DNA of 54,673 bases, from the NCBI GenBank assembly GCA_037447655.1, contig JBBHKE010003125.1:35948-90620 (forward strand), read 5' to 3'. The position numbers and the translations under genes are program-made. Positions 22,708-54,673 of this stretch are shown here, in pieces. Position 1 is the stretch's first letter; each line of letters starts with the position of its first letter. The stretch comes from Zygnema cylindricum. Lineage: Eukaryota > Streptophyta > Zygnematophyceae > Zygnematales > Zygnemataceae. The notes beneath the pieces are model-generated. The model was not told the DNA's origin, did no database searches, and worked only from the letters and a program-made list of their open reading frames with translations.

Positions 22708-25700
22708 ATGTCTACTTCTAATACTACTGCTGTTGCTCCACCTACACCTGTTGTCATAGAACAACAGGTTATGGGAATGTTTTCAAGAATTCATGTGTTT
22801 AATGTACAGAAATATGTTTAATGGGCAGACATGGTTGAGTCTTACTTTGAAACTGCAAGTTTATAGGAAATTTTGGATGGATCACTTCATGAAGCTGATC
22901 CAACTTGGGGGAAAAAGAATTTGCAAGCTTAGAATGCTCTCAAAATATGTCTTTCGGAGAACATGGTTATGTCACGAATCAAGATGAAGAAGGCGATTGA
23001 CATCTGGAAATCACTCAAGGCGTCTTAAGAGAAAGGCAAATGTTCAAGAGGAACTTCTGTTGGCAGGAAAAATCTGGGACTACCAATACTCAGGGGAACA
23101 ATGGCCGAGTATACAGATAACTTTAGAGCTCTTATTGATGCTCATGCTTGTGCTGGTGGCTCCTTCTCTAAGTTCCAGCAGGCTGTTTTAATCATTAGAG
23201 GTCTTCCTAACAGCATGAAAGAAACGTCTGCTAAACTGAAAATTCATGATAAAGCTAGCTGGACACTCAATTAGCTATTATTATTATTCTGGAGGAGGAG
23301 TCTACGTGAAAGATGCTTAATGGAGAGAAAAAAGTAGAGGCATTTAACACAGACTTTGACAGAGAAGTACAGTTTAATCAGGCAAAAAATCAGTTTAATC
23401 TACAAAGGAATCAAATTAACTCAAATCAGGGTCAGTTTAAACAGTTTAATCAAGGGCCAAATAGAAAGTCTTTTACTGCTTGCTTTTATTGTTCAGAGAG
23501 AGGTCATGGATATAGATACTGTCTTGAACTCAAAAAGGCAAATGAGACAGGATTATATCGGCCAGGTTGGGAACAAAGCTTGTATAACCAAGGATTTTCA
23601 GGTCATCGGTTACAAAACAACTCATTGTTTTTCTTCATCTGTCACTAAGGAAGATGAGTCTTTGACCTTCAATGAACAAGATGACTCGGTGTTATATTCC
23701 ATAGCGGCAGCAATGGAGGGCTCAAAGGACGTTGGATGGATCATGGACACAGGGGCATCGACCCACATGTGTTGGAACAAGGGACTTTTTTCCAATCTGC
23801 AGACAACACGTGCAAAGAATATCTACTATACTTGTGGCATGAGTGTATAGACTTGTGCTCACGTTGATATTTCATTGCTGGTAGATGTAGGCGGAAAGTT
23901 TGTTGAGGGAACATTTCATAATGTCTTATATGTTCCGAACTTCAAAAAGAATTTGTTTTCCACTTCTTTGGTTCAAAGCAAAGGATTTGAAATCACCCTT
24001 AAGAGGGGGTAGGCAGGTTGTAAGCAAGCTAGGAAAAATAGCAGTGACAGGAACTGGAGATGCAAGCAAAATGTATCGTATGGACATGGCTGATTCTAAG
24101 GAAAATGATGTTCTCTACTCTTTTGTAGTATGTGAAAATGAATTATGGCATAAAAGGCTAAGACTTGTTCACTTTTACAGTTTAACAAAAATGGTGAAGG
24201 CTAGGAAAGTAGAGGGTGTTTCTCTCACAGATCACTTAGTCAAAACTTGTGATGGCTGCTCTTTAGGAAAGATACATAAACTGCCTTTTCCACAAGAATC
24301 GGATCATATATCTACAAAAGTCTTGCAGCTAATTCACTCGGATGTTTGAGGACCTGCTCAGGTGCCATCTGCTGGGGGGGTTCGTTTTTTGGTAACGTTT
24401 AGAGATGACTTCTCCAGATTCACTAAAGTTTAGTTCATGAAAGACAAGAGTGAAGTGTCCGGACACTTCAAACTACAAAGTTTGGGCGGAAAAACTTCAT
24501 GGTGTTTCGCTTTTGGAACACAGATCAGACAATGGAGGAGAGTATATGTCAAAAGAATTCGAAAATTTTCTGTTGGATGAGGGTATAAGTCGCTAACTCA
24601 CTGTTCCTTACACTCCTCAGCACAATGGTTTTTCGGAAAGATTAAACAGAACCATTACAGAATGTGCTAGATCTATGCTAAGAGATTAAAATATAGATTT
24701 GAAATTCTGGGATGAGGCCCTTAACTGTGCAATTTATATCAAAAATAGAATTGGTTCTAGGTTTGTCACTACTACACCCTTTGAACTTTGGACAGGTAGA
24801 AAGGCTGATGTTTGTCATTTCAGAGTTTTTGGAAGTAAATGCTTTGTTTTGAACACCTCACCAAGCACTTGGAAAATGGAACCAAAAGGTTTATCGGGTA
24901 TCTTTATCGGGTATGATGATACTTCAAAAGGCTACAGAGTATATGTTTTTGATAAGCAAAAAGTAATTGTGTCAAGAAATATTATTATAAAGGATGAGGA
25001 AGTTTGAGCATATCTATTTAACATGACAGAAAAACAGGCTGAGGAAAAGTCAATAGAATATGTTATACACAAGAAACAATTTATTTTCCAGCTGTTTGAC
25101 AGCCTCTTACAGATCTAGTGTCTTGTGATCCTCAGGTTCCTCTTCAGACTCAGATGGAGCAAGCTGAACCGGTCTAAGAGTAACAGCAACAAGTCACAAT
25201 ACAAACGAGGAACGTCAAGGATCCATCGGTCTCCGCCTCAGAATTTCCGGGGGGAAGGAGATCTAGCAACCGTTTACAATGTGGATCACACTTTGCCAAC
25301 TCTGCTAACTCGTGAGAACCTCTAACTATTCCGGAAACCTTCTCTTCACCCAAAAGAAACCACTAGACTGAGGCGGCAAACAATGAAGTGAAGTCGATAA
25401 TGGAAGCTCAAACGTGGGAGTTGGTTGATCTTCTTCCGGACGGGAAAGCCATCTGCAGCAAATGGGTATTCAAACTGAAACTAAATCCGGATGGCACCAT
25501 TGAAAGATACAAAGCGAGACTTGTGGCGAAATACTAGAATAAGAAAGAAGGAATTGAATTTGAGGAGACTTTCTCTCCGGTGGTAAGGTTTCCAACTACC
25601 AGAATTTTATTAAGTCTAGCTGCAATTGAAAACATAAAAGTCGTTAAATAGATGTTAAAACAACTTTTCTTCATAGAGAGCTTGAAGAAACTACTTATAT

Positions 25701-31457: not shown

Positions 31458-34400
31458 ATGGAGGACACAGAATTGCAGGTTATGGGCCCACCCTCTAGGG
31501 TGCCCACCTTCAATGGATCTGGGTTCATCTATTGGGAAGCCATGATGATGGGAGCTTTGTGTGAGAAACGATAATGGGGTATCGTCAGTGGACAAGTGAA
31601 ACGTCCACCTTCAGGAACTCCACCAAGATTTGGGGGAGTAAGGTTTTCTGCAACAACGGCTGCCTTAATGGAGGAGGCAGATGATGGGGACAGCAGTGTG
31701 TCCGAAAAGGAGAAAGGGAAGGAGACACCCCTCACTCCTATTGTCACAGTATCGGGAGCGGCGACCGTGAAGACCGTGGAGAACGATACTCAAATGTGGG
31801 AGGAAGTAAACATGGCTGCATAGAACTTCATTCTGAGGCACCTCACTCAAGGTTTGGCCACTCCTCATCTTCACATTTACAAGGCCGAGGAGTTGTGGGA
31901 GAGTTTGGTGGAGATATATAGAGCTGGAACTATTCAGGAGCTCCAGTTGGCTGAGCAAAAGCTATTGAGTTAAACTTACAAAGGAGGAAAGATGTTAGAT
32001 TACTGTAATGATCTTTCTTGTTTGTATATGGAAATGGAAAGTGCTGGGTCGACAGGTACAATGAAAATGAAAGTTAACACCCTTATCATGAAATTACCAG
32101 ATGAGTTCGAAAACATAGTGTGCTGAGTACAGGGAATGCCTGATAGTTCATGGAAATGGAACACAGTAGTCAGGATGATACTTGTGCAGGAAAACACAAT
32201 GGAGATTAGGAGAGGAAGAAAGAGCATTCAAGCTCTACCAGCAGGAGGGGACCGATGGGGGAAGGAGCCGAAGAAACCTTATAGAGGGGAGAGAGATCAT
32301 TCTGGGGGACAAAGGCCCCCAAAAGGTATTTGTCATTATTGCAAAAAGTCGGGACACTTTATTGCAAATTGTGTCAAGCTATCAGAGCTGAGGCTTCAAG
32401 AGAACCGTGGAGGGGGTTCTTCCGGAGGGAAGAAAAAGGCACTTGTGGTTACAAAAGTGTCAGGAGAGACCGAGGATGAGTCATCTGAGGAGGATGGGGA
32501 GCTTCTTCTTCACGAGAGTCTGGAGGAGAAGGAGATCCCTTGGAGACAGAAGTGTGCCCTTAGAGTAATTCGGGAAGCTCCACAAGAAGGATGGATCATC
32601 GACTCAAGTGCATCCATGCATATGTGTTGTGATAATGAACTCTTCACTAAGATAAGAAAGATTCCCACTGTAGAGATAGAGTATGGGGATGGAGAGTGGT
32701 TACTACAGATCTAGTGGGATTAGTAGATCTGAAAGTCTTAGTGGAGGGTAAGACTTCTATACTTACATTCTCAGATGTACTTTACATTCCACAGCTGAGT
32801 AAAAACCTTGTCTCTACGTCTGTGTTAGATGACAAAGAGTTTGATACCTTCACCAGAAAGGGAGTCTTTACAGCTAAGTATGGGAATGAAGTTTACTTCA
32901 CAGCAGATAAGGGTAGCCAAGGAATGTTTAGGCTTAACCTGAGTAATGAAAACAAGAATGCTTACTATGTTGGTGTTCCTAAGGTGATGATTTGGCATAA
33001 GCGGTTGGGGCATTTGCATTTTGATAGGTTGAGGAAAATGAAAAAGCTTGGGGTAGTGGATGGCATTCAGTTTGGGGATAATGAAATGATGGATGATTGT
33101 AGTGGTTGTGCTTAAAGTAAGGCTCACAGACTTCCCTTTTCCAAAGCTGCCACATACATAGGTGAGAAAGTGTTAGATTTGGTCCACACAGATATTTGGG
33201 GACCTGCAAAAGTACCTTCAGTTGGAGGAAAGAGGTTCATGATGACCATAACTGATGACAGGTCTAGATACTCTAGAGTCTATTTTCTGAAAACAAAGTC
33301 TGAAGCATCAACTTACTTCAAAGAATATAAAGCTTGGAGTGAGAAGTTGCATAAAACCCCCATTAAGAGGATAATGAGTGATAATGGGGGGGAATATACC
33401 TCTAACGAGTTTGAGGAATATATGAGAGATGAGGGAGTGAACCACCAAAAAACTGTACCATATAACCCGAAACAAAATGGCGTAGCTGAGAGGTTAAATC
33501 GAACATTTGGAGATAGAGTACGCAGTATGTTGGCCGACAAGAAAATAGGAAAGAGATTTTGGGCAAATCGAACATTAGGAGATAGTGTACGCAGTATGTT
33601 GGCCGACAAGATAATAGGAAAGAGATTTTGGGCAGAAGCAATGAACTGTGCCAACTACATTAAGAATAGAGTCCTTACCTCAGCTATAAAGGGAGTGACA
33701 CCTTATGAGTGATGGGTTGGAAGGAAACCAGATATCTCACACCTTAAAGTATTTGGTAGCCAAGTTTACAGTCTTGACACGGATAGGAAAAACTGGAAAC
33801 TAGATGCTAAGGGAAAACCTGGATACATTGTGGGATATGATGAGGATGTTAAGGGATAAAGAGTCTATGACTTAGCAAATAAAGATATCATTCTGGTCAA
33901 ACACTTAGTTGTCATGGATGAAGGGAAGTCATTTGACCCCTTTAAATATACAAAGAAGATAAGGATCTGATTTGAGTCCGAAAGTGATGAGAATTCGGTC
34001 GTTCTCGAAAGGGACATGAATGAAACCGTGATTACAGATTCAGGGGAGATCCAAGATACAGGAGACTCACCGGAAACCTCACATACTCCTATGGAATTCG
34101 AGGAGATAGAAGAAGCGGGACAAGAACCGGTTTCTATGGACAGGGGAGCCGATGAGACAGAGAAAAGAAATCCAAGACTTCCATCCATTCCAGCTTTGGA
34201 GTTTGAGGGAGGAAGGACGAGCAGCAAAAGGATACAGGAAAAATAAGCTGCCCATAAGGTAACTAAGCTATCTCACCCAGATGAGCCTCAGTCTTACTTA
34301 GAGGAAGTGAATAGTCCAGAGAAAGAAAGATGGATTAGAGCCATAAATGATGAGATGACTTCTATCATGGAAGCAAATACTTGGGAACTAGCGGATTGCC

Positions 34401-34629
34401 CTCCAGACAGAAAAACTATTGGATGTAAATGGGTATTTAAACTAAAACTAAACCCAGATAATACAATTGAGAGGTATAAGGCTCGATTGGTAGCGAAGGG
34501 GTTCACCCAAAAAGAGGGGATTGACTATGAGGAGACCTTTGCTCCAGTTGTTTGGTTCCCATCAGTAAGGATTCTCCTCAGTCTGGCCGCAGTGGAAGAC
34601 ATGGAAATTCACCAGATGGATATTTAGAC
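31458..34629 (+). pseudogene. Copia A3 gag, protease, integrase and RT N-terminal remnant
   Basis: It starts at the LTR-internal ATG 31458. Stops include TAA 31572-31574, one near 31821, and others in gag. The zinc knuckle CHYCKKSGHFIANC (about 32330-32370) is intact. The protease site is mutated from DSGAS to DSSAS at about 32600. One base is lost near 32690. Integrase keeps MSDNGGEY and NGVAERLNRT but carries an in-frame 69-bp tandem duplication (33497-33634). The RT start carries a stop at 34625-34627. No functional Gag or integrase is expected. Confidence 0.88.
33497..33634 (+). repeat. 69-bp in-frame tandem duplication in A3 integrase
   Basis: The segment starting AATCGAACATT and ending GATTTTGGGCA occurs twice (33497-33565, 33566-33634) with four or so differences. 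It repeats the stretch just after the catalytic Glu (NRT..MLADK..GKRFWA). A1 and A2 have one copy. Confidence 0.92.
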
Positions 34630-34829
34630 TGCTTTTCTTAATGGTGAGTTAGAGGAATTTTTATGAGGCAACCCGAGGGGTTTGTGGAAGAAGGAGAAGA
34701 GAGAAAAGTCTGCAGGCTCATAAAGTCCTTATATGGACTGAAACGGGCTCTCGACAGTGGAATAAGAAACTAGATGAGTTTCTCACCGATCCGGGATACA
34801 TTCGGATCAGCTCTGACCATTCTATCTAT

Positions 34830-35870
34830 ATGTTTGAAGATGAGAATGGTGTCATTTTTATTGCAATTTATGTGGATGATCTGCTTGTGTTAAGTAAGTC
34901 TTTAGATAATATCAATAGGCTAAAGAAAGATCTTAGGGGCAGATTTGATATGAAGGATTTAGGGGAGGCAAAATATATTTTGGGGATCCAAATGGAGAGA
35001 GATAGAGGGAAGAAGATTATCAGACTTACTCAGAAAGAAGCAATAGGTAATATGCTTGAGAAATTCCAGATGGAAAATGCTAACAGTTGTACCACTCCCA
35101 TGGACTTGAAAAAAGTAAGTGATGGGAGTATAGAAGGAGGAGTGATGATCTTAGATGATCAGATGAGTCCAAAGGAGAGAGAGTTTATGAAGTCTATCCC
35201 TTATAGACAGGTCGTAGGGTGTTTATTTTATTTTATGAACTGTACCAGGCCGGACATAGCGGCAGCAGTTGGAGTACTCAGTATGAGTCTTAATGATCCT
35301 AGGAAGAGAGACTGGGAGGCAACCAAGAGAGTCATGAGATATCTGGTTGGAACTAGAGAATTATGGTTGCATTTGGGAGGGGAGCACACTGATATCACCA
35401 CTTGGAGTGATGCCACTTATGGGGATGCACCTATGACAAGATGCACTTATGGATATGTTTTGTATGTGGGGGAAGGAGCTTGCTGTTGGAGCAGTAAGCA
35501 ACAAAAGATGGTTGCTCAGTCTACTATGGAGGCTGAGTATATGGCTTCTTGTTCTGATGTAAAAGAACTAATGTGGGTGAAGTCATTGTTGCAAGAACTA
35601 GGATATATGAAGGAGGGAGTGCATGAAATCTTTTGCGATATTCAAGTTACAATCGCAATCGCAGCCAATCCAAAACACCATTTCAAAGCAAAACATATGG
35701 ACATAAGATTAAGCTTCGTAAGAGAAAAAGTTGAAAATAAAATTTTAAATCTTGTGTATAGACCTGATGAAGAAATGGTGGTTGACATGATGACCAAACT
35801 TGTGCCCTCTCCTAAATTAAAATATCGTCGGGAGAAATGCGGGTTAAAAGAAAAATTAAAATTAGACTAG
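34830..35870 (+). CDS. Copia A3 RT C-terminus and RNase H open frame
   Basis: This is a 346-codon open frame in the element frame, starting at an internal Met that is not a native start. It shows the RT catalytic box IYVDDLLVLSKS near its start and RNase H motifs WSDATY, MEAEYMA and CDIQVTIAI (A1 has CDNQAAI, so the conserved Asn is changed). It ends in AKHMDIRLSF..MMTKLVPSPK, then TAG before the polypurine tract. The upstream RT part is frameshifted and has a stop (34600-34830), so no complete enzyme is made. Confidence 0.85.
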   Translation: MFEDENGVIFIAIYVDDLLVLSKSLDNINRLKKDLRGRFDMKDLGEAKYILGIQMERDRGKKIIRLTQKEAIGNMLEKFQMENANSCTTPMDLKKVSDGSIEGGVMILDDQMSPKEREFMKSIPYRQVVGCLFYFMNCTRPDIAAAVGVLSMSLNDPRKRDWEATKRVMRYLVGTRELWLHLGGEHTDITTWSDATYGDAPMTRCTYGYVLYVGEGACCWSSKQQKMVAQSTMEAEYMASCSDVKELMWVKSLLQELGYMKEGVHEIFCDIQVTIAIAANPKHHFKAKHMDIRLSFVREKVENKILNLVYRPDEEMVVDMMTKLVPSPKLKYRREKCGLKEKLKLD

Positions 35871-42423: not shown

Positions 42424-43611
42424 TGTCAAGCGCGTGTGCATCTTCGGCACATTTGCACTCCTAGGAGTTCCGGGGCTTCATTCCACTTGGGACGGACTCT
42501 AGCATACTGAGAAGGAAGAGGACAATCAGCCAGATCAGATCTTTCTATTTTCATCCTGGAACACTACGCAATTTAGTTCACCTTAAACGGAGGTCGACCT
42601 GAGGAGTTAGTCCGGTGCAAAGTGTCTGATCCATTATAGTGTGTGTTCTATGTAGCTCTAGTAGAGGGATACCTTAGAGAACGACACGTCACATTTGGAA
42701 ATTATCCCGTAGATCTTACTGTTAGCTATCAGTATGATGTTAGTTCAGGCCCAACCACCGGGCAAAGCATTTATGACGTTGGGACAAAGTTAGGCGGTTT
42801 CACGTCGAGTCAGAACTTTGTTTCCATTTTGTGTATTATAGAAGGACCTTCGGCCGCCAATTCAGCCAAAACCAGTCGTCTATCTTTAAGCCCTGAGTGT
42901 AGTACAGTCTGTTTTGTCTTATGTCAGGACGATAAAAATTGCTGGCCGCTGATTGGCTTGTTAAATTGCTTTGACTTTGGAACTTGCAGTAGGACAAACT
43001 CAAATTGTATAAGGCACTTGGGGCCGAAAGAGACAGGTTGCTTTTCAGTACTGTCTCTTGAGAAAACCCCCAGAGAATTAAAATCAATCTTTCTGTTGGA
43101 GAACGGTTGCATTGTGTCGTGGACTCTATTGACATCTTTGTTTTGGATTGTCTTTTGTGGAGACCGTAGCACGGGTGGGTAGTTGGCACTATCTCCTCTT
43201 TGGGCGGTTTGGACTTTCGCTGATTGAAACTAAGAAGAGTCTTGTCGGATCCTTGCGGTGGAACCGGGAGGGTTGAAGGAGACTCATACCGGTCTTCGGG
43301 GCCATTGGGAGAGGTTTCTTCTGCTGAGTTTGGCCATCGTTGCACTCTAGGGTATGTGAATTCGCTTCACCATTATCATTCATTTCTATCTTTAATTTTA
43401 TTCTATGGGGCAAGGTGATATTGTTTAATCTGAAAAGCCGATATTTATTATTTCTATATATCTGCGTGGGAGTTATTTGCACACTCTTGTGGTCATCCTT
43501 GGGTTTGTCCGGAGTTTTCGCGGAAAGGATCGGACGACTCTCATTTCCTTCCTATTCTTTGGAGAGTAGCTGGGAGTGTGGCATTTAGTGGGCTCCCAGT
43601 GGAGTAGCACA
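42424..43611 (+). repeat. Left LTR of Gypsy G
   Basis: It begins directly after the Copia C2 gag fragment. Apparent frames within it (for example 42643-43182, 43340-43588) recur in the right LTR and show no domain. A clear TATA box is not seen. Confidence 0.9.
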
Positions 43612-43708
43612 GTACTGAAAAGCCACCTGTCCCCTTTTGTTTAAGAGGATAGCTGCTTAGGGTGGTGTATTTTATCCGAGAGATCTAGCTCATCTGCTCG
43701 TGTAAGTC
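43612..43708 (+). other. Gypsy G leader, PBS not identified
   Basis: GTACTGAAAAGCCACCTG follows the LTR. No TGG-type tRNA 3'-end complement is obvious. The core CTGAAAAGCC also occurs inside the LTR at about 43429, in direct orientation. The priming mode is open. Confidence 0.4.
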
Positions 43709-45670
43709 ATGGGCGGAGGAGAATCTCCGGATAGGGATCCTTCCGGTGTTAGTCCGGAAGAACAGGAAAGACAAGAAGGGGTGGCACAAGAGGAAGAGTC
43801 CCAGGTGCCTGAGGAATCGGTCCCTTTCACCTCTGCTTTGAACATTGAACAGTTTCTTAAGGGGATGATGCCCCAGCCGGTTGTCGTCGAGACTCCTCCG
43901 AGGCCGACAGAGAGGCAACCCTCACCTCCACCTCCTCCAGTCTTTTCCCCTGAAAACTTTCCGACGTTGTCCGAGGCCGCTAGGGCTAGGGCCACGGGGA
44001 AGGAAGAAAAACAACCTTTATCTCCCCGATCTCGTAGAAAGGGTTTGGCTCACAAGGAAGCGGTCCCAGGCCACCCTCCCGAGGTGGTACGTTATACCAG
44101 ATCTAAGGCTCCAATAGTGGAGACATATATGGATCCTGAACTCTTGTCGGACCCTAACCGACCCGGTCGTAAGGAGATTCTAGCCCTTCACAATATCCAT
44201 GAGTTGAAGGTTAAGAAGGAGCTGGTGCAGCGGGTTGCCAGAAGTGACCGAGCCCGGATCATACGCCCCGTGGGAGGAGTAGTGGAGATCCTGAGTAGCT
44301 CGTCCGAGAGTGGCTCTCCCATCTCAGCCCGAGAGCAACCGGAGATGCCGTCCACTTCACGACAACAGCCCACCATATCTCAGGAAACTGCTACCAGTAG
44401 ACCTTCTAGGGGCATAGCAACTTCCCGGGGCCGGACCAGGGAAGGGAGTAGCAAGCGGAAGATACCTGAGCCTAAGAGAGATTTCCGGTTCAACCATCGG
44501 GACAGCAAAGGTCGATTTGCTCCCTTAGTCAAAGAAGAGACGTTCTTTCCTTCTGCCTCAGTTTCCCCAAGCTCTATGTCTCCTTCCGCACCAGTTGTCC
44601 GACCATCCGAAGGACTATGGCGTTCAAGGCCTACGGATCCTGAGGTACCCGGTTTGGGGATTGCGGATCTCTCGGGTGTGGTGAGCAGCACCCAGAAATT
44701 GGTTGAGATTCTGCGACGCAGGATAAGGCTACGGCGGGGGCCGCACCCGTCGCAATAGATTGGGATGCCCTGGAAGAGGAAAGGAAGAAAGCATTGGAAC
44801 AAGAGCTAGTCTTGATACGGGAGGCTAGATGGAGATCTGGGGGAATCCTTAGTGGACAGGTAGCACCTCCCCGTAGAACAGGTCCCGCGACGGAAGTACC
44901 ACCTCTGGATCAAGCAACTCCCCCTACCACGCGAGATCTCCGAAATTCACCAGAACCAAGACCAGAATCTCCTCTTCAGCGAGAATGGGAGGAAACAACA
45001 AGGCCTAACAAAAAGGTGTTGGGTGCAGATTTGCCGAGTGATCCGGTAGGCGCGGCTACAGATCTCCATACATTTGTCTCGGTCGAGGGATTTTTTACCG
45101 TGGAGGCCGTGGTGCAGCTACAACCAGACCGGAGACTACACATTTCCCTCGGACTTACTACTCCTCCTCCATCGCCACCTCAGGCATCCTCTCCTTCGCC
45201 TTCTGTTTCTCCGACCGCTGCAGTCCGTGGGTCACCGGGACCACCAGTCTTACCCTACAAGTACGACGTTCCTGCCTACTCTCCTCCTCACCGACGTTCT
45301 CCTCGGTTCCAGCGAAGGAACTCCTCCACCAGAAACCTCCACAAGGCGTACACGGAGACAGACACCTTTCCCTCGTAGCCCTCCGTCATCTCCATCCCTT
45401 TCTCCACCAATCCCTCAACGACCATCGGTAACTAAACCCATTCTCCACATTCCCTCGGTGGAAACACTTCAACGGGAGGAACGGGCCTCTCCTTGGTATA
45501 GAGGAGCAGGACTTCGAGCAGCTTTTCCCAAGACCGCTCCCTCTACTGGAGAAGGAGGTGAGCCTGAGCCAGACAACGCAAATCCAGGGGTAATTTCACC
45601 GGTCCAGTTTGTTAGCCCAACCGGACCATCCTCTTCACAGTTCACCAACCTTGCAGAAAAAGAAAAATAA
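43709..45670 (+). pseudogene. Gypsy G ORF0: Pro/Ser-rich protein before gag (frameshifted)
   Basis: The first segment is 43709-44758 (349 codons, starting MGGGESPDRDPSG). The coding sense then moves to another frame (DKATAGAAPVAIDWDALEEE from about 44717, open to 45378) and back again (45300-45670, ending FTNLAEKEK). Together this is about 650 residues. It is rich in Pro, Ser, Arg and Glu with PPPPP and SPSPS runs, predicted disordered, with Arg/Lys patches (RSRRKG, RGRTREGSSKRK). I recognise no domain. It stops with TAA at 45668-45670 exactly abutting the gag ATG. It could be an N-terminal Gag extension or an accessory nucleic-acid-binding protein. The two frameshifts are probably decay. Confidence 0.65.
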
Positions 45671-47272
45671 ATGGGAGACGTCCAGATCTTCACCGGGGAC
45701 AACTCAGGAATTGCCTTCTCTGATTTTGAGCTGCTATGGAAATCCTTCACGCAGTCTGAAATTAACAAATACAGGGGAGGGGCCATTCCAGCAGATTTTG
45801 AAACAACCCTGTTTCTGATGATCGTAAATTATCTAGCCGGAGGAGCTTTGGCCGATTATAAGGAGTGTCAACCTTTGTTAATTGCCCCCAGTATCAAAAT
45901 ATCGGATCCGGATCTGGACGCCGAGGTTCTTCAGGCAGCAGCTGACTTGGCTGCCGCAGCCGCAACTCCTCTCACCGCCATTTTCACCATGGATATGAAA
46001 CTTCAGGCCCAAGGCAGGGCCTATTTCAACCACCTTCAGGCTGTACAGGCAGTCGAAGCAGCCACCAGGATGGTTGCCAATCCTAATCCCTGTACCACTC
46101 TTCTGGACGCTTGGAGACTCCTTTACACCGAAAGGAACGAAACTGCAATCAAGGAGTTCACAGACTTCCGCTGTTTGAAGAATGAAACTCCCCAGACGCT
46201 GTTCAACCGCCTCTCCAGCCTCTGCCAGAAGACCAAACTGTCCACCATCGAAACACCAGCTATGGCCACCAAATATTATGTCGCTGTTCGAAATTCCTTC
46301 GGGCCAACAGGACAGGCAGCCCTGGACAATTAGAGCTCGAGTCAGGCTATACACGATCGGAATCCCACAGCTCAAGAAATTTCATTGGCTGCTATGAAAT
46401 TGTATGATCATTTTGTTAATAGCGAGGCACGAGAAAAGGCTGTGACCGGGAAATCCAGAGCCAACTTTGTAGGTTTCGCCGGAGAAACATCGCTAAGCCA
46501 CAAAGAACAGACAGAACTGCAAGCTTTGCGGAAGCTTAAGGGGAAACAGGAAGCGGATGCCCGACCAGAACTTGCAATGGGGGGAGATGAAAAAGTTTTT
46601 CTTTATGACTGCCTGAACTGTAACCAGCCGGGTCACGGATGGAAAAGGTGCCCCAGAAAGCTCAAACCAGAACTCGCCATCAAGCAGAAGGAGTTTGAAA
46701 GGGAGCGTGCGCAAAGAACAAGGAAACAGCAAGAACGCAAGCAATGAGGCGAAGGAGGAGACCGAACCCCGGTCACTAAGGAAACCTATAAACCTACTCC
46801 ACGCTCTGAAACCTCCAAAATGTCTCAATCCCAGTTGAGACAAATCCGACTTCCGAAATTCGATGACGCTCAAATCTCTAATGGGCTAAGGGGGAAGTAT
46901 ACTTCTGAAGGGTCAAAATGTGAAGCTTGTGGGTTCATGGGCCACAAAGAAGGGCAATGCTTTCGGAAAAATGGGGTTCCGAAGGAGATGATGCAATATA
47001 CATTGTTTACAGGCGAAGGGGAAAATGCCGTTAATCCTCTGCCACTGCAACTTTTGTATCCCTGGGGACGATCTCCAAATGAACCGGGGTTCAGCAGACT
47101 GACACCGGAACATATCATTCATCAACAAAGCACTCAGTTGGCCGCTTTGGCAACAAAACTAGCCGCTCTCCGACTGCGATCCTCTTTCCGCACTCCTCCA
47201 CCTCTTACGCCGGCTCTAAAACTACAGAAACAAAAACAAGAACTGCTACAAAAGCTAGCGGAGCTGGAGTAG
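45671..47272 (+). pseudogene. Gypsy G Gag with two CCHC knuckles
   Basis: The ATG at 45671 starts MGDVQIFTGDNSGIAFSDF. 45671-46333 is alpha-helical capsid-like (WRLLYTERNETAIKEFTDF, then LFNRLSSLCQ). The frame continues past TAG 46331-46333 into a nucleocapsid part with CLNCNQPGHGWKRC (about 46609-46650), past TGA 46745-46747, to a second knuckle CEACGFMGHKEGQC (about 46918-46960). It stops at TAG 47270-47272. Both knuckles fit C-x2-C-x4-H-x4-C. All three stops lie in one frame, so a single ancestral Gag is likely. Gag assembles particles and binds element RNA. Confidence 0.82.
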
Positions 47273-47281
47273 CAAACCACG

Positions 47282-48570
47282 TTGGGTGGAGACGATGATG
47301 ACCCGATAGGTTGGGATATGGAGCCTCCAAAGGCTCAGCATGCTAGGACATTTCTGTCCGGAGCATGGAACGTTGGTGTAGGGGACAGTCGCAGGCAACT
47401 ACGCTCTACAACGTCCTCCCAAAGAAAAGACAAACAACCGATGGAACAAAAGGACCACAGTCGCAAAACCACCGGCCCCTTATCCTTTACCCCGCGAGCA
47501 GTACTTCTAAACAGTGACGTTCGACTGGGACTCAAGCCGACTAACCCGCCTCCTCCGGCTCCTAAGAAACTTCCTCCCGGTTTTGAAGATTACAAGAAGA
47601 CACAGCCGAAAGAAAATACTTCAACCACTGAAACAGATCAGGAGTGGTTCGACAGATACATGGCAGAGAGACCGTCCGCAGATCCGCCAATTACACCTCC
47701 TACGGGGAATTCTGACGCAGAAAGTGAGGAAGAAGGGGGGGGGGGGACAGGAGAAATCGGAAGACGAGGACTCACCCATTTCATCGCCTAAAGCTCTCCC
47801 TCCTTTCTCCAAACCGGCAGTTATGCTAGTACGACACTTAATGCCCTACGCCTTGACGCATGTCAAAACGCTGGCTTCCTCCCACAATCTGCCCGAAAAA
47901 AACCCTCATTCAGGCATTAGGGGAAGAAATTCACACTAGGAGGAAAAGGGTCGCGTTGGCAGAACCGCCCAAGATAGTCTTCATGTCGGCAGAACCAAAA
48001 ACCTCTATGGCAGATAGGGATTATAAGGCCCTTTCGGTGGCTCTTATTCTCAACAGGACGGGAAATTTTAAACTTAATGGATACGGCGGGTACCAGGATG
48101 CAGTGGTGGATACCGGAGCTCTTCGAAACTTAATAACTACATCAGCGTTACAACAAATGCCCGAGGAACTCCGGCCAAAAATCAGTCCAAGTGACATATG
48201 CTTGAGCACAGTCAGCAGTGGCAGCCAACCCGTATATGGGATCATAAAAGCCATGGAAATCGAATTTGCTGACGACGCAGGCCAGCACGTGCAGATTCGG
48301 CTTCCCTTCCTAGTGGTGGAAGGTAAGCAATTTGAGATTTTGCTAGGTATGGCTACGTGGACAAGGTTGAACATGGAGTTGAGCGTATGGAAGGAACAAG
48401 TTACAGTCTCAGACCCTAAGGATCCGGAAGGAACAAAAGTGGTGGTCCCCTTGGATATGTGGAACCGGGGAAAAACGACTGTTCCGGTGTCTAGATGCTA
48501 TCGCGTCTACTCTGCCTCAACCCCCTCGGAGCTGTTCAAATTCTCCAACGATATCGCTGATTCTATCTAG
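47282..48570 (+). pseudogene. Gypsy G linker and aspartic protease
   Basis: 47282-47740 is an acidic/Pro-rich linker. The frame shifts at a 12-G run (47735-47746) and again at an A-run near 47897. From there a single frame runs on through protease, methyltransferase and RT. The protease spans about 48000-48400, with the active site AVVDTGALRNLIT (about 48100-48140) and the later strand FEILLGMATWTRLN. It would cleave the polyprotein and so release the methyltransferase. TAG at 48568-48570 separates it from the next domain in the same frame. Confidence 0.82.
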
Positions 48571-49710
48571 CAATTCCCTATTTCCAAGCGGTGGGAAAAG
48601 GAGTATCAGAACCGATTGGTACAGATGGCCACACTTTGGCTGGAAGTGGACAGGAGCTTGGCTGCAATATCACCCGGAGCAGCAAAAGTCCCCCGGTCGG
48701 AACTACCAACGGTTCCTAACAAAGGGAAAGACTTTAATCGACAAGTGGTGTCACTACAAATCCCGCTTTCAGGACTTAGGATTCTATCCCTATTTTCTGG
48801 CATTAGTTCCGATCTGGAAGCCGTCCTGAAAGCTGGATACCAAATAGAAACTTACTCGGCAGTCGAGATAGACCCGGAAGCCCGTGCAGTCAGTGAGTAC
48901 CGCCTGCAACAGCTGCACCAACTTTACCCACAGCAACTCCCGGTGACCGCCATGTCTAACTCTCATCGCACACTTCCCCAGAATGTGGATAATATCACAG
49001 AGTCTCATCTGGAAAAGCTCGGAAGGGTAGACCTGGTGGTCAGTGGATGGCCATGCCAGGGGTATTTGTTAGCAGGACAGGGCCAGGGACACCAAGACGT
49101 CCGTAGCAGAACTTTCTTTCAAATGACCAGACTAATAACAAGGTTACAGGAACGCCAGGACACACCAGTGGGGTACGTCTTGGAAAACGTTCACCCCACA
49201 AATAATAAGAGAAAACAGGTGGTTAGCAGCTGGAACCAAGTTACCAAGGTTCTAAGGACTCCCATAGTTTTTGATGCAGCTCAGATCGGATCAAGAGCCC
49301 ACAGAGTTCGGGCATATTGGACCAACTTGGTTCCTCTTCCAATCCTCCAACTGCTGTTGAGAACACAGGTTACAGATCCCAACATAACGGTCCAACAGAT
49401 CCTCGGTCCGGGGCGAATGGCCACACCGGTGATCACAGCCAACAAATCACCCTTCTTCTGTTGTAATAAGCCTGGGTATCCACGGAGGGCCCTCCCAACA
49501 CTGGTATCTTTTCCTAATAGCCATGCTTACCGGAAGGGCGCACCAGGAATGATCTTTGACAGTACAACCGCCACGTGGACAGCGCCGAATATTACAGAAC
49601 GGGAACAAGCAATGGGGTTTCAAGAGGGAACCACAGCTGCGCCAGGGGTATCGGCTTCAAAAAGGTGCAGTTTAATCGGACAAAGCATGGATTTAAATGC
49701 AATTTCCTGA
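48571..49710 (+). CDS. DNMT3-like cytosine-5 DNA methyltransferase domain in Gypsy pol
   Basis: About 380 codons without an internal stop, in the same frame as protease and RT. It would transfer methyl from S-adenosylmethionine to C5 of cytosine in DNA. Motifs run in canonical order: I, LRILSLFSGISSDLEAVLKA (from about 48772); II, YSAVEID; IV, VVSGWPCQG with the catalytic Cys at 49054-49056; VI, GYVLENVHP with the Glu at 49183; VIII, QIGSRAHRVRAYWTNL (from about 49282); a target-recognition stretch; IX/X-like REQAMGFQEG and CSLIGQSMDLNAIS. FSGIS (not FGGxG) and AHRxRxYWTNL favour the DNMT3 side over DNMT1 or CMT. The order is not permuted as in plant DRM. No PWWP or ADD domain is attached. 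No native start exists: it is part of a polyprotein. A host DNMT3 or a viral/bacterial enzyme are possible sources. Activity is inferred, not shown. Confidence 0.92.
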   Translation, partial: QFPISKRWEKEYQNRLVQMATLWLEVDRSLAAISPGAAKVPRSELPTVPNKGKDFNRQVVSLQIPLSGLRILSLFSGISSDLEAVLKAGYQIETYSAVEIDPEARAVSEYRLQQLHQLYPQQLPVTAMSNSHRTLPQNVDNITESHLEKLGRVDLVVSGWPCQGYLLAGQGQGHQDVRSRTFFQMTRLITRLQERQDTPVGYVLENVHPTNNKRKQVVSSWNQVTKVLRTPIVFDAAQIGSRAHRVRAYWTNLVPLPILQLLLRTQVTDPNITVQQILGPGRMATPVITANKSPFFCCNKPGYPRRALPTLVSFPNSHAYRKGAPGMIFDSTTATWTAPNITEREQAMGFQEGTTAAPGVSASKRCSLIGQSMDLNAIS

Positions 49711-51645
49711 GTGCTGAAACATTCTCTTGCATTCTCAAGCCTTCAGTCTCCAAAATCACGGACAACATACCTTCAAGCTCCACAGTTGTTGGCCATGCAA
49801 GCAACTCTAAAGCTAGAGGGGGGGAGAGAGACAAGGAGGGAAAAATTCACATTCACCAAATTCCCAAGAACTTCCTCAGTGGGGGGGAGCAATGCCACAC
49901 TGGACCCAGGAGTTCCCTTAGTGGGGGGGGGCAGAGTCCCAGAACAGGACAGCTTAGAGGAAGTTGTCAGTAGCAGCGTTTTAACAGCCGAACAAGGGAT
50001 CGACCCACAGGTAGAGCTGACCTTCGACATCTCTCTTTTGGGTAGACCACCGGAAGCCTTGGCGGCAGTGGAACCCGAGAAGATGGACTGGACTCTAGGT
50101 GAACAGCTAGACCCACAGCAGAAGGCCCGGCTCTCCAAGCTGTTAGAAGATAACGAGCAGGTGTTCGCCTGGTCGGACACCGATGTAGGGATCTATAAAG
50201 GGTCTCCTTTTCGGATTGACTTGATCGACGAGACGGCTACTGTTTGGCAGAAACAGTACCCTCTCAGTTTCAAGGAGAAGGAGTTCATCACTTCAAAGGT
50301 GCAGACTTTGGTGGAAGTTGGGCTAGTTCAGAAGAGTACAGGACTACATGGGTTTGCCTCACCAACTGTGCTCCCGCCAAAGAAAGACTCCTCCAAAAAA
50401 ACTGTAGATTTCCAGATGTGTGGGGACTATCGGATGCTCAACGCGGCAACTGTCTCCGACCGTTATCCTATGCCTACCCTGGAAGAGATCTTTGACTCTC
50501 TTGCTGGGGCCACCATTTACTCCACTTTGGATATGAAAAATGGATTTCACCAGATTGCAATGGAGCGGAAACACCGAGAGAGGACTGCTTTTTGGGCCGG
50601 ATCCAGGCTATATGAATGGCTGTACATGCCATTTGGCCTCAAGAATGCACCTGCCAAATTCCAACGGGCCATGGACGAGGCTCTCCAGGGAATTCATTTC
50701 GCACGGTGTTATATCGACGATGTTATCATTTTCTCCAAGACCTTCGAAGAACACTTCGAGCACATATAGATCGTTCTCCGGGCACTCCAAGCAGCGGGTT
50801 TGAAGTGTCACCCGGGGAAGGGCATCTTTGGGGTGCAGAAAATTATTTATCTGGGTCATGAGGTGACTCCCGGGACAGTGGGTCCCCACATGGTTAAGGT
50901 GGCAGCCCTAGATGCTCTTCCACCCCCGCAGGACATCTCTGCTCTTCGTACTTTCCCCGGCCTTGCCAACTATTACCGGCGGTTTATTCGTGAATTCAGT
51001 AGCCACGCTCAGCCATTGAACCAATTGTTGCGAAAGGACCAAGAGTTGCAGTGGAAGGAAGAACAGCAGATAGCGTTCCAATTCCTGAAGGATTCCCTCA
51101 AACAGCATCCTGTGCTCCGGATGCCCGATCACCAGCGGCCTTTTCTCCTTTATACAGATTGGAGCAGGTTCGGATTGGGAAAAGTTCTGGCTCAATTGGA
51201 CGATGCAGGGGTTGAGTACGTAGTGGCCTACGCAAGCCGGAGTAATAACAGAGCAGAGGGGAATTACAGCAGTTACCATGGGGAATTACTCGCCGTGGTT
51301 TGGGCCATCCAGCACTTCCGGCCTTACCTCTATGGAGTACACTTCACCCTCATTACGGATCACCAGCCCCTCAAATGGATCATGGAGAACAGTAAGCTGA
51401 CTGGAAAGCTAGCTAGATGGGTTCTCATCTTGCAAGAATATGATTTCAGCATTATCCATCGAGCCGGGGAGATTCATGGAAATGCCGACGGACTCAGCAG
51501 GAATCCGGACCCTCCACCAGAGACTCTATTGGGGCACGACATGACGAAGACCCTGAGCTCAGCCTGGGACTCATCCGGGCTTCCTCTGCTTTTATTTGGC
51601 TGCCTCGAGCCGAAGGAGTACTGTCAACTTTTGCTACAGATGTAG
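49711..51645 (+). pseudogene. Gypsy G reverse transcriptase and RNase H
   Basis: A linker of about 130 residues with two G-rich runs leads to RT. The motifs are LVQKSTGLHGFASPTVLPPK, MCGDYRMLN, YSTLDMKNGFHQI, FWAGSRLYEWLYMPFGLKNA and the catalytic CYIDDVIIFSK (YIDD 50710-50721; Ty3/Gypsy usually has YxDD). TAG 50767-50769 interrupts the frame, and the RT thumb continues as GLKCHPGKGIFGVQKI. RNase H follows, with LLYTDWSRFGLGKVL, GELLAVVWAIQHFRPYLYG, ITDHQPLKW and GNADGLSRNP, so the acidic residues are present. A frameshift near 51565 leads into the integrase frame. Apart from these two lesions the enzyme region looks complete. Confidence 0.9.
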
Positions 51646-52906
51646 AGGGGCATGCCCCCATTGGAGCCGGCTGGAAGGATATATGGAATGACAGCGATTC
51701 CCTCCAATCTATCCAGAAGGGCTCTCCTCTATCCCACCTTTCCAGAAGTCAATTGTCCCGTGTTCAGAACCGAATGGCGGCTTATGAATGGGACCGAGGC
51801 ATCCTTCTCCGGAAATGGGCCGATGGGACGAGGAAAGTGGTTCCCCCTCCGGCAGATCGAGAAACGCTCATTGTTCGGCTTCACCAGCAATGCGGGCACT
51901 TCGGACAGAAACCAACAACCTCGCTAGTCACAGGGTCGTATTGGTGGCATGGGTTGCGGGCCCAGGTCAATCGTGTGGTGCAAATGTGCCCTTCCTGTGA
52001 CCGGATAAAAGCAGCTTTTGAAAAAAAGGGTGGGACTGAGCTTCATTCCCTCCCCATCCGGGGGATGTTTTACAGATGGTCACTAGATCTGCTAGGACAA
52101 CTTTCTACGAGCCGGAGGGGGAACCGTTTTGTTCTGGTCATGATTGAACACTTCTCTAAGTGGATTAAATTGGTGGTTCTTCCCCGAAAGGAGTCCAAAG
52201 CCATCGCGGACTCATTCTTGCAGAGAGTGTTGTCTTAATTTGGAGCACCAGCCGAAGTTCTGACGGATCAAGGGTTTCCTAATTTGCCGGAGAATTTTCT
52301 AACCTTCTGGAGAAGTGCCTCATTGACCACCGGTTAACCAGCAGAGACCACCCCCAAGCCGACGGCTTGGCCGAGAGGTGCGTACAGACAGTGAAGGGGT
52401 CACTACGGAAATATGCGGTTGAAGAGGATTTGGGGGAGTGGGACACACAGGTGCCTTCGATTGCTATGGGTTACAAGTTCAGCAGGCAGGCATCTCTCCA
52501 CTCCTATAGCCTTTACTTCATTCTCTTCGGCCGACATCCCATCGTACCAGGGGCTGCGTCGGCTCAGGCAGTTGTTCTTCCGGAGATGGACAACCGGGGT
52601 ACTGTAGAGAAACTGATTGCCGACCGGGCTAAGGTATTTCAGCGGGAAATACCTCTGGCCATGGGCAATTTACAGGCTACTCAGCACAGAGATCAACTCT
52701 GGTATTCCCAATGACGGAGCGGCAATTATGTCCCCCGGCAACGTGGATTTGTGCCCGGGGATTTTGTGTATCGCATGCAACAGAAGAAGGATACTTTGGA
52801 CATTTCAGCCAGACGAATGATTTTGAAAGTGGTGGAGGTCTTGAACAAAGGGGTTCTTACCTTGGAAGGGAAAGATGGCCGCAAAATTAAATAAAATCAG
52901 ATCAAT
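51646..52906 (+). pseudogene. Gypsy G integrase
   Basis: The frame starts upstream of 51753 (YEWDRGILLRKW). The zinc-binding HHCC domain is LHQQCGHFGQKP..CPSCDRIK (about 51877-52010). The catalytic core has D in WSLDLLGQL (about 52080), D in VLTDQGF (about 52262) and E in ADGLAERCVQTVK (about 52370). TAA 52236-52238 and a frameshift near 52275 fall inside the core, and TGA 52712-52714 lies after it. The C-terminal domain reads RGFVPGDFVYRMQQKK..LTLEGKDGRKIK, then TAA near 52892, then NQINVAPCHL, as in the GPY/F-like ends of Gypsy integrases. The PHD finger follows in the same frame. Confidence 0.87.
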
Positions 52907-53140
52907 GTGGCCCCTTGCCATCTGCGAGGGTTAGAGGAGGAACCCACTTTCCACCTCACATATTTTGCAGACCCTCCTGCCTGTTCCTCTGCCTGCCATG
53001 TGTCCTCCGTACCCTACCTCCTATTGGTGTGTGAACGCTGTCACCAGGGGTGGCATGACTGCTGCCTACCTCTGAATTGGGAGCCCCGCTCTCAACCCGC
53101 AAATCCGTGGTTCTGTGGGGACTGCGATTTTGGCGGCTAA
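52907..53140 (+). CDS. PHD-type zinc finger at integrase C-terminus
   Basis: A 77-codon segment is in frame with the integrase C-terminal domain, separated only by the TAA near 52892. Zinc ligands are arranged as in PHD fingers: CSSAC, about 12 residues, CERC, HQGWHDCC, about 19 residues, then WFCGDC. The Trp before the last Cys pair is the usual PHD Trp. PHD fingers read the histone H3 tail, so the likely role is to steer the integration complex to chromatin of a given state, as chromodomains do in chromoviruses. The first pair has three spacer residues where two are normal. It ends at TAA 53138-53140. Confidence 0.8.
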   Translation: MAPCHLRGLEEEPTFHLTYFADPPACSSACHVSSVPYLLLVCERCHQGWHDCCLPLNWEPRSQPANPWFCGDCDFGG

Positions 53141-53393
53141 TCTGTCTAATCCTCTTAGTCACGTGGGACTAAGAGGGGGGGGAAATCTGGGAAGGGGGGA
53201 ACAGGGTACTTTTCTTTTCCACTCCATTCCTCCTTACTCTCTATGCATATCCCTGGGGGGGGGTAATGAACAAAGATGGGCATTATCACGGATCCAAGGG
53301 AGCATCAGCATTTGGGGTGGATTGCAGGTTTCTCATGCACACATCGTTGGACATATAACCTGGACATCCCGGTTACCAGGCACGCTCGACAGC
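53141..53393 (+). other. Gypsy G 3' tail with polypurine runs
   Basis: AAGAGGGGGGGGAAA (about 53171-53185), GGGAAGGGGGGAACAGGG and GGGGGGGGG near 53255 are polypurine-tract candidates. They lie 130-220 bp before the LTR boundary I assign, instead of directly next to it. The 53183-53275 segment is repeated after the right LTR. Confidence 0.55.
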
Positions 53394-54580
53394 TGTCAAG
53401 CGCGTGTGCATCTTCGGCACATTTGCACTCCTAGGAGTTCCGGGGCTTCATTCCACTTGGGACGGACTGTAGCATACTGAGAAGGAAGAGGACAATCAGC
53501 CAGATCAAATCTTTCTATTTTCATCCTGGAACACTACGCAATTTAGTTCACCTTAAACGGAGGTCGACCTGAGGAGTTAGTCCGGTGCAAAGTGTCTGAT
53601 CCATTATAGTGTGTGTTCTATGTAGCTCTAGTAGAGGGATACCTTAGAGAACGACACGTCACATTTGGGATTATCCCGTAGATCTTACTGTTAGCTGTCA
53701 GTATGATGTTAGTTCAGGCCCAACCACCGGGCAAAGCATTTATGACGTAGGGACAAAGTTAGGCGGTTTCACGTCGAGTCAGAACTTTGTTTCCATTTTG
53801 TGTATTATAGAAGGACCTTTGGCCGCCAATTCAGCCGAAACCAGTCGTCTATCTTTTAGCCCTGAGTGTAGTACAGTCTGTTTTGTCTTATGTTAGGACG
53901 ATATCAATTGCTGGTTGCTGATTGGCTTGTTAAATTGCTTTGACTGTGGAACTTGCAGTAGGACAAACTCAAATTGTATAAGGCACTTGGGGCCGAAGGA
54001 GACATGTTGCTTTTCAATACTGTCTCTTGAGAAAACCCCCAAAGAATTAAAATCAATCTTTCTGTTGGAGAACGGTTGCATTGTGTCGTGGACTCTATTG
54101 CCATCTTTGTTTTGGATTGTCTTTTGTGGAGACCGTAGCACGAGTGGGTAGTTGGCACTATCTTCTCTTTGGGCGGTTTGGACTTTCGCTGTTTGAAACT
54201 AAGAAGAGTCTTGTCACATCCTTGCGGTGGAACCGGGAGGGTTGAGGGAGACTCATACCGGTCTTCGGGGCCATTGGGATAGGTTTCTTCTGCTGAGTTT
54301 GGCCATCGTTGCACTCCGGGGTATGTGAATTCGCTTCACCATTATCATTCATTTCTATCTTTAATTTCATTCTCTGGGGCAAGGTGATATTGTTTAATCT
54401 GAAAAGCCGATATTTATTATTTCTATATTTTTGCGTGGGAGTTATTTGCACACTCTTGTGGTCATCTTTGGGTTTGTCCGGAGTTTTCGCGGAAAGGATC
54501 GGACGACTCTCATTTCCTTCCTATTCTTTGGAGAGTAGCTGGGAGTGTGGCATTTAGTGGGCTCCCAGTGGAGTAGCACA
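53394..54580 (+). repeat. Right LTR of Gypsy G
   Basis: It matches the left LTR from TGTCAAGCGCG to GTAGCACA. It is followed directly by a second copy of the 3' tail, which suggests a tandem unit of tail plus LTR. Confidence 0.9.
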
Positions 54581-54673
54581 AAATCTGGGAAGGGGGGAAC
54601 AGGGTACTTTTCTTTTCCACTCCATTCCTCCTTACTCTCTATGCATATCCCTGGGGGGGGGTAATAAACAGAG
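54581..54673 (+). repeat. Second copy of the Gypsy G 3' tail, runs off the window
   Basis: AAATCTGGGAAGGGGGGAAC through CCCTGGGGGGGGGTAATAAAC repeats 53183-53275 with few changes. The expected next unit would be another LTR, beyond the window end. Confidence 0.85.

What the first reader, a model, noticed from the sequence alone, without database searches (positions are those of the whole stretch)
48571..49710. Gypsy retrotransposon carrying a complete DNMT3-like DNA methyltransferase inside pol
The sequence shows all main C5-methyltransferase motifs in canonical order (FSGIS, WPCQG, LENVHP, AHRVRAYWTNL, MGFQEG) in the same frame as protease and RT. Captured methyltransferases in retrotransposons have been reported in charophyte algae and dinoflagellates, where self-methylation of the new DNA copy was proposed. 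Here the enzyme would be cut out by the element's protease. Such an element could mark its own cDNA, hide from or alter host silencing, or change host methylation.
Basis: partly seen in the sequence, partly recalled or inferred. Interest (0 to 1): 0.95.

Follow-up and report, generated by a model that had tools for sequence, protein, structure and literature searches.

The report
Jumping gene carrying DNA-methylating enzyme
A retrotransposon family in what looks like a green-alga genome carries a DNA-methylating enzyme inside its replication polyprotein; one such element was described in 2018, but here the enzyme is selected in many copies, sits behind a conserved, probably leaky stop codon, and belongs to a larger group of such elements.

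Summary
Window 48571-49710 encodes a C5-cytosine methyltransferase (PF00145, E 1.3e-10), closest by sequence and predicted fold to DNMT3A/3B, between protease and reverse transcriptase of a Ty3/Gypsy element. It is no chance insertion: at least 108 places in the genome encode it, two copies read methyltransferase-RT-RH-INT-PHD in one frame, and it is under purifying selection (dN/dS 0.16). The kind is known: KnitGypsy-Dnmt3 of Klebsormidium (2018).

What my searches did not find in print: (1) a UAG separates protease and methyltransferase in 34 of 34 places inspected, mostly as UAG-CAA-UUC, so the UAG at 48568-48570 is probably a readthrough stop, not decay. (2) Related methyltransferase-bearing Gypsy elements, including Closterium and Haematococcus, have two domain orders; catalytic residues never vary, but the motif IV proline is Glu in 46 of 59. 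(3) The repeats are A-coding-B-A-B with a DDE integrase, and the A/B joint differs between copies, sometimes with microhomology, as if cDNA ends were joined in a circle before integration.

The window copy is itself broken. Self-methylation of cDNA is plausible but untested; CpG depletion gives it no support.

The parts
42424..43611 (+). repeat A1 (5' terminal repeat, begins TGTC); 97.2% identical to A2
43706..45670 (+). ORF1, proline-rich, no Pfam match in the piece scanned (43706-44758); broken in this copy
45671..46747 (+). ORF2, gag-like with a CCHC zinc knuckle (read by eye); interrupted in this copy
47857..48570 (+). aspartyl protease (PF13650 E 1.1e-4, 23.3 bits, just under its cut-off of 24.3)
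48568..48570 (+). UAG followed by CAAUUC, conserved in the family I and II copies inspected: probable programmed readthrough stop
48571..49710 (+). DNMT3-like C5-cytosine methyltransferase; this copy ends in a stop that most other copies lack
49048..49062 (+). motif IV WPCQG with catalytic Cys
49711..50769 (+). reverse transcriptase (RVT_1)
50770..51645 (+). RNase H
51444..52716 (+). integrase (H2C2 zinc-binding plus DDE core; frame broken in this copy)
53027..53137 (+). C-terminal PHD-like finger
53171..53182 (+). polypurine tract directly before B1
53183..53391 (+). repeat B1 (ends GACA)
53388..53397 (.). palindrome GACAGCTGTC at the B1-GC-A2 junction
53394..54580 (+). repeat A2
54581..54673 (+). 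repeat B2 (runs 116 bases past the window, ends GACA)

Best explanation
This is a defective copy of a multi-copy Ty3/Gypsy retrotransposon family, probably of a green alga, whose pol carries a DNMT3-type methyltransferase. Shown: between protease and methyltransferase stands a UAG conserved with its context; behind it, in some copies, lies one open frame for methyltransferase-RT-RNase H-integrase-PHD; the catalytic residues are kept and the domain is under purifying selection. Inferred: a minority of ribosomes read through the UAG, so the methyltransferase is packed with RT and integrase and methylates the element's new DNA (cDNA or circle) de novo before integration, and the PHD finger helps the integrase complex find chromatin. 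Also inferred: the DNA goes through a circle formed by joining the cDNA ends, and integrase opens that circle at an internal GACA-GC-TGTC site, leaving A-coding-B-A-B.
For: PF00145; DNMT3A best in PDB by sequence; the 50 structural matches listed (of 1638) are all entries of DNMT3A, 3B or 3C, some with 3L (on a medium-confidence model, pTM 0.70). At least 108 places; open frames of 1520 and 1525 aa spanning the downstream domains (only the first was scanned with Pfam). Methyltransferase dN/dS 0.157 between those two copies, above their other domains (0.06-0.10) but far below 1. Catalytic Cys, ENV Glu and Asn, both Arg of RxR, Trp and Asn of motif VIII identical in 60 of 60 rows. UAG in 34 of 34 places, CAAUUC after it in 32. 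Methyltransferase and RT distances correlate, r 0.78 over 44 elements and 0.95 over 18 of order alpha, so the enzyme travels with its element. A2/B2 joints differ between copies, three with overlaps of 14, 2 and 1 bases.
Against: No activity data; de Mendoza 2018 expressed the KnitGypsy-Dnmt3 domain in yeast and saw no methylation, which they call inconclusive because human DNMT3B also failed (PMC5890265). CpG depletion is weaker than in Copia ORFs without the enzyme. The window's A1/A2 repeats show C-to-T-type changes enriched at CG and CHG sites (P 0.001), but a second copy does not (P 0.77), and host enzymes would do the same. Target-site duplications are unconvincing. No A-B-A-coding-B form was seen. 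UAG-CAA-UUC departs from the recalled TMV consensus UAG-CAR-YYA in its last base.
Confidence: 0.5

Rival explanations
1. The enzyme acts on host chromatin rather than on the element's DNA, for example methylating the insertion site or host genes so that element and host tolerate each other.
For: A PHD-like finger ends the same polyprotein (below Pfam's cut-off in this family), and PHD fingers commonly read histone H3 (recalled); de Mendoza 2018 discusses host-directed effects (PMC5890265, section 11).
Against: Position beside RT, and co-inheritance with RT, suit action on cDNA; no host methylome here.
Confidence: 0.2
2. The domain is kept for a role other than cytosine-C5 methylation of DNA (RNA methylation, DNA binding, scaffold for RT), most likely in the relatives in which motif IV is ECQ.
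For: 46 of 59 rows have Glu for the motif IV proline; no CpG-depletion signature.
Against: Catalytic Cys, ENV and RxR invariant; the window family keeps PCQ.
Confidence: 0.2
3. The stop between protease and methyltransferase is bypassed by re-initiation or a separate transcript rather than readthrough.
For: The 19th codon after the stop is Met.
Against: Same frame on both sides; UAG in 34 of 34 and CAAUUC in 32 of 34 places across families I and II; the residues right after the stop (QFPIS) are kept in nearly all of them.
Confidence: 0.15
4. Chance insertion, contamination or assembly error.
For: The window copy alone is broken.
Against: Over a hundred copies on many contigs, further families with the same order, relatives in other collections.
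Confidence: 0.01

Closest known systems
KnitGypsy-Dnmt3 of Klebsormidium nitens (de Mendoza et al. 2018, PMC5890265; abstract, passages and sections 9 and 11 read)
   Same: Dnmt3 domain, not rearranged as in DRM, in Gypsy pol; purifying selection; repeats arranged as in DIRS although the domains are Gypsy's (their Fig. 4 legend).
   Different: The parts I read mention no leaky stop, PHD finger, second Gypsy domain order, motif IV Pro-to-Glu change or variable joint; they describe an acquisition independent of that in Symbiodinium, in the K. nitens lineage. Sequence relation not tested, because no K. nitens sequence was to hand.
SymbioDIRS-Dnmt3 and SymbioLINE-Dnmt (same paper)
   Same: DNMT captured by a retrotransposon; SymbioDIRS enzymes shown to methylate CG in yeast.
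   Different: DIRS with tyrosine recombinase, or LINE; dinoflagellates.
PAT/Ngaro-type retrotransposons with split direct repeats (recalled)
   Same: A-coding-B-A-B repeats.
   Different: Tyrosine recombinase there, DDE integrase here.
Spumaretrovirus integrase on 2-LTR circles (PMC1180852; abstract and outline read)
   Same: Integrase cutting a palindrome at an LTR-LTR junction is the nearest precedent for the proposed opening of a circle.
   Different: There the palindrome arises where two LTR ends meet in the circle; here an equivalent palindrome is carried inside the element.

Membership tests
DNMT3-class C5-cytosine methyltransferase | PF00145 with motifs I, IV, VI, VIII, X in canonical, unpermuted order | tested here: met
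DNMT3-class C5-cytosine methyltransferase | closest to DNMT3 rather than other C5 enzymes | tested here: met
   sequence; fold (medium-confidence model); no tree with host DNMT3, DRM or CMT was made
DNMT3-class C5-cytosine methyltransferase | methylates DNA de novo | not testable with these tools
   needs an assay
Ty3/Gypsy | PR, RT, RNase H, DDE integrase in that order | tested here: met
   methyltransferase inserted between PR and RT
Ty3/Gypsy | two identical terminal repeats as the element's ends | tested here: not met
   A-coding-B-A-B; so Gypsy by domains, not by repeat form
Ty3/Gypsy | 4-6 bp target-site duplication | tested here: inconclusive
   six left/right flank pairs of five copies; own pairs match slightly more than shuffled (248, 185 and 430 of 5000 shuffles as high for 4, 5 and 6 bp)
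DIRS/PAT | split direct repeats | tested here: met
DIRS/PAT | tyrosine recombinase | tested here: not met
   none in the nine window pieces scanned or the 1520 aa frame, which has a DDE core instead
KnitGypsy-Dnmt3 | Dnmt3 in Gypsy pol with DIRS-like repeats | tested here: met
   their description; ours
KnitGypsy-Dnmt3 | common descent with it | not tested
   no K. nitens sequence available
TMV-type leaky UAG | UAG-CAR-YYA (recalled) | tested here: inconclusive
   UAG-CAA-UUC: all but the last base; readthrough itself not measured

The most novel reading that the evidence does not exclude
A deep group of Gypsy elements of green algae lives with a captured DNMT3 and integrates from circles: cDNA ends are joined by end-joining, each genomic copy keeps that scar at its A2/B2 joint, and the DDE integrase opens the circle at an internal GACAGCTGTC that the element carries as a copy of its own circle junction. 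The methyltransferase, expressed by UAG readthrough, marks that circle, and in most of the group it does so with an acidic residue in place of the motif IV proline.
Probability: 0.25. Interest if true: 0.85.

Novelty: new variant of a known kind. Interest (0 to 1): 0.6.

Why it matters
It turns one published curiosity into a group of elements in which the enzyme has been carried along with the reverse transcriptase, which argues for a use in the element's cycle. The conserved stop suggests when and in what dose the enzyme is made, and the variable joints offer a readable record of the DNA intermediate. If ECQ enzymes are active, a residue thought fixed in cytosine methyltransferases (recalled) is not required.

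Tried and rejected
Rejected: chance insertion; stop codons as sense codons (a 2322-codon relative and the 1520-codon frame contain none); CpG depletion as evidence of self-methylation (two Copia ORFs without the enzyme are more depleted); post-insertion deletion as the only cause of the variable A2/B2 joint (one copy carries 337 bases of internal sequence there, which a deletion cannot add). The model 'a 2-LTR circle is cut at random' predicts A-B-A-coding-B copies as often; none was seen at the six left ends that I could read (window, C1374, C1920, C1662, C518, C665), so the choice of site must be biased or the model is incomplete.

Led nowhere: two IMG/VR scans (no relative). Eight paper searches listed no title or abstract reporting a leaky stop, PHD finger or ECQ motif in such elements; I read only five papers, in part; subscription journals are mostly not held, and supplements were not readable. 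A ribosomal RNA look to name the host, a count of RT copies without the enzyme and a genome-wide look at the junction did not complete. The host is therefore unnamed. A chromomethylase-like exon (my reading from memory) suggests Viridiplantae. Size (353 Mb), the median contig length of 30 loci (about 228 kb) and the Copia elements of the window resemble Zygnema cf. cylindricum SAG 698-1a (359.8 Mb, N50 213.9 kb, Copia 29.8%, PHD count at least 9-fold larger; PMC9915684, passages), but its 3,587 scaffolds are not our 2,689 contigs, and this is a guess.

Full report
Observation. The stretch 48571-49710 is one open frame of 379 codons. It matches Pfam DNA_methylase PF00145 with E 1.3e-10, and its best solved relatives are DNMT3A chains, then DNMT3C and DNMT3B, then bacterial HhaI at much weaker scores. 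The upstream frame matches aspartyl protease (just under Pfam's cut-off), the downstream frames RT, RNase H and integrase. A predicted structure (9-row alignment, mean pLDDT 69.5, pTM 0.70) has, as the 50 listed of 1638 PDB matches, only entries of DNMT3A, 3B or 3C, some with 3L. The model is of medium confidence, but the class is consistent.

Not one copy. The window lies in an unnamed 353 Mb genome. The methyltransferase is encoded at 108 distinct places (110 matched rows; 108 candidates scored of 1945 in the first look, so a lower bound) at 61-100% identity; 22 of the 110 rows have no stop inside. A Pfam search of the same genome gives 123 matches, all over the cut-off. I read three families: I (the window's; copies from about 94% down to about 66% identical to it), II (two loci, L046 and L048) and III (five loci, L041-L045). 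One family III element is a single 2322-codon frame, gag-protease-methyltransferase-RT-RNase H-integrase (Pfam, the protease there by my reading). Two family I copies (C1374, C544) have one frame of 1520 and 1525 codons from methyltransferase to a C-terminal PHD-like finger. Pfam finds methyltransferase, RT, RNase H, H2C2 and rve in the first, and a PHD finger below the cut-off (17.5 against 24 bits); the second was not scanned.

Selection. Between those two copies dN/dS is 0.157 for the methyltransferase (361 codons), 0.100 protease, 0.063 RT, 0.095 RNase H, 0.078 gag part. Between them and two copies of the more distant subfamily (C161, C665) synonymous change is saturated while nonsynonymous differences are 0.17-0.20 per site for the methyltransferase and 0.04-0.11 for RT. 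Between C161 and C665, which are partly decayed, the ratio is 0.75 for RT, 0.93 for RNase H, 0.49 for protease and 0.23 for the methyltransferase. The enzyme is thus selected, though it changes faster than RT.

A conserved stop. The UAG at 48568-48570, which the window alone would suggest is decay, stands at the same place in 30 of 30 family I loci (the 30 best matches), in C161 and C665, and in both family II loci: 34 of 34. In 32 of 34 it is followed by CAAUUC; the exceptions are L008 and L027. The family III element L041 has no stop there. From memory, the tobacco mosaic virus leaky stop is UAG-CAR-YYA, so this context agrees in all but the last base. I infer programmed readthrough, which puts the methyltransferase at the start of the minor, polymerase-containing product. 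By contrast the stop at 49708-49710 is shared by two of 19 other copies in which I can read that codon, and the window copy has further stops and frame breaks in gag, RT and integrase. It is a dead copy of a family that has open ones.

Relatives. A search with a full-length relative gave 40 proteins with the enzyme, most of them nameless, two named Haematococcus lacustris. A search with RT listed 120 of 3687 matches, 117 of them new, of which 16 carry the enzyme, among them Closterium NIES-54 and NIES-53. Two domain orders occur: alpha, methyltransferase before RT (the window genome's families, Closterium and others), and beta, after RNase H and before integrase (34 rows of the tree against 20 of alpha and 5 unassigned; one Haematococcus protein is beta), often with a PHD finger. 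Matches shorter than about 240 residues were left out of the tree. In the methyltransferase tree each order is one side of a branch (SH-aLRT 99); it is a quick tree with one distant, partial outgroup, long branches (P0135 joins the outgroup) and five rows of odd composition. In the RT tree (46 rows with the enzyme, and the 45 best-scoring of 81 without, nearly all animal; plant elements were not among them), 42 enzyme-free RTs lie on one side of a branch (99), beta is one clade, alpha is not (4 changes), and three enzyme-free proteins lie among the bearers. One of these (P0157) has a methyltransferase remnant (E 1.1e-6), and two have only 41 and 177 residues before RT, too few to show a loss. 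Distances of methyltransferase and RT correlate: r 0.78 in 44 elements, 0.95 in 18 alpha elements. One capture with one relocation is the simplest reading; two captures from related sources are not excluded, and the set was chosen by similarity to our queries.

Motif IV. Over 60 aligned rows (59 from elements or unassigned relatives, one DNMT3A) the catalytic Cys, the Glu and Asn of ENV, both Arg of RxR, and Trp and Asn of motif VIII are identical in 60 of 60. The proline before the Cys is Pro in 13 (12 without DNMT3A), Glu in 46 and Asp in one, with five changes on the tree; some rows are near-copies of each other. The window family keeps Pro. That such a residue should vary surprised me; the claim that it is near-invariant in C5 enzymes is recalled, not tested.

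Repeats. The window element is A1 (1188 bp) - coding - polypurine tract - B1 (209 bp) - GC - A2 - B2, beginning TGTC and ending GACA. C665 of the distant subfamily has the same layout with an identical core at the junction, GCACGCTCGACA-GC-TGTCAAGC, although its repeats differ strongly otherwise. Of ten further family I copies looked at only near their expected ends, six show B1-A2-B2, one (C1920) shows B1 followed directly by flank, and three gave no readable right end. With the window and C1374 this makes eight joints, and they differ: A stops at 1188 (window, C2216), 1185 (C1374), 1179 (C224), 987 (C1718), 806 (C1042) or 431 (C518), or runs 337 bases into the internal region (C507); B starts at 1, 1, 1, 13, 22, 12, 59 and 25 in the same order. 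Overlaps of 14, 2 and 1 bases occur at C507, C1718 and C518, an insert of 6 at C1042, and about 20 unaligned bases at C224, whose repeats are only about 80-88% alike. This looks like end-joining of cDNA ends. The polypurine tract lies directly before B1, so a normal reverse transcription product would be B-A-coding-B-A; joining its ends and opening one B|A site gives what is seen, and a one-repeat circle gives C1920. I found no tRNA-like primer site after A1 by eye and did not test for one. Integrase cutting a palindrome in LTR circles has a precedent in spumaretrovirus (PMC1180852, abstract). Against it: no A-B-A-coding-B form was seen, and flanking duplications are only weakly better than shuffled flanks.

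Does it methylate itself? CpG observed/expected has a median of 0.63 in the 30 family I loci, 0.70 and 0.68 in family II, 0.87-1.01 in family III, and 0.33 and 0.37 in two Copia ORFs of the window that lack the enzyme. So there is no signature tied to the enzyme. In the window's A repeats transitions favour CG and CHG over CHH sites (14 of 181 against 6 of 352, P 0.001), but not in C1374 (5 of 200 against 7 of 340, P 0.77). Host methylation explains this equally well.

Known and new. De Mendoza et al. 2018 (PMC5890265; abstract, passages, sections 9 and 11) reported Dnmt3 in Gypsy pol of Klebsormidium, purifying selection, and DIRS-like repeats, and suggested that retrotransposons could methylate their own cDNA. 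That is this kind of element. New here, as far as the searches show, are the conserved stop, the PHD finger, the second Gypsy domain order, the spread to Closterium and Haematococcus, the ECQ motif and the variable joints. PMC12344493 (passages) mentions DNMT3 in retrotransposons as reported before in streptophytes and dinoflagellates; PMC6338049 (passages) reviews accessory domains, says that methylase-bearing Gypsy and DIRS elements occur in green algae and charophytes among others, and suggests antiviral defence, so the spread to green algae is not wholly unreported.

Noticed in passing
window 5674-8967: Near-intact Copia pol frame of 1097 codons (named by eye), with decayed relatives around 14288-17200, 23338-24349 and 32127-35870; the two ORFs measured are strongly CpG-depleted (0.33 and 0.37).
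   Followed up: partly
L041-L045: A separate Gypsy family in the same genome whose methyltransferase has ECQ for PCQ and little CpG depletion; one element is open over 2322 codons.
   Followed up: partly
L047:1178-1477: Chromomethylase-like exon (PPCQG...ENVTDL, read from memory), probably a host gene; suggests a green-plant-lineage host.
   Followed up: no
window 43706-45670: A long proline-rich ORF1 before gag without any Pfam match in the piece scanned; its stop is directly followed by the ATG of ORF2 in the window copy.
   Followed up: no
L034:2408-2732 and 6449-8184: In copy C1374 a first B repeat ends in flank-like sequence, and about 4 kb further a second end-of-coding-B-A-B block follows, as if two insertions lie side by side.
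   Followed up: partly
P0002, P0014-P0046: Gypsy polyproteins with the methyltransferase between RNase H and integrase where both can be seen, a few within that range being exceptions or partial (P0021 is of the other order), often with a C-terminal PHD finger; one is Haematococcus lacustris.
   Followed up: partly
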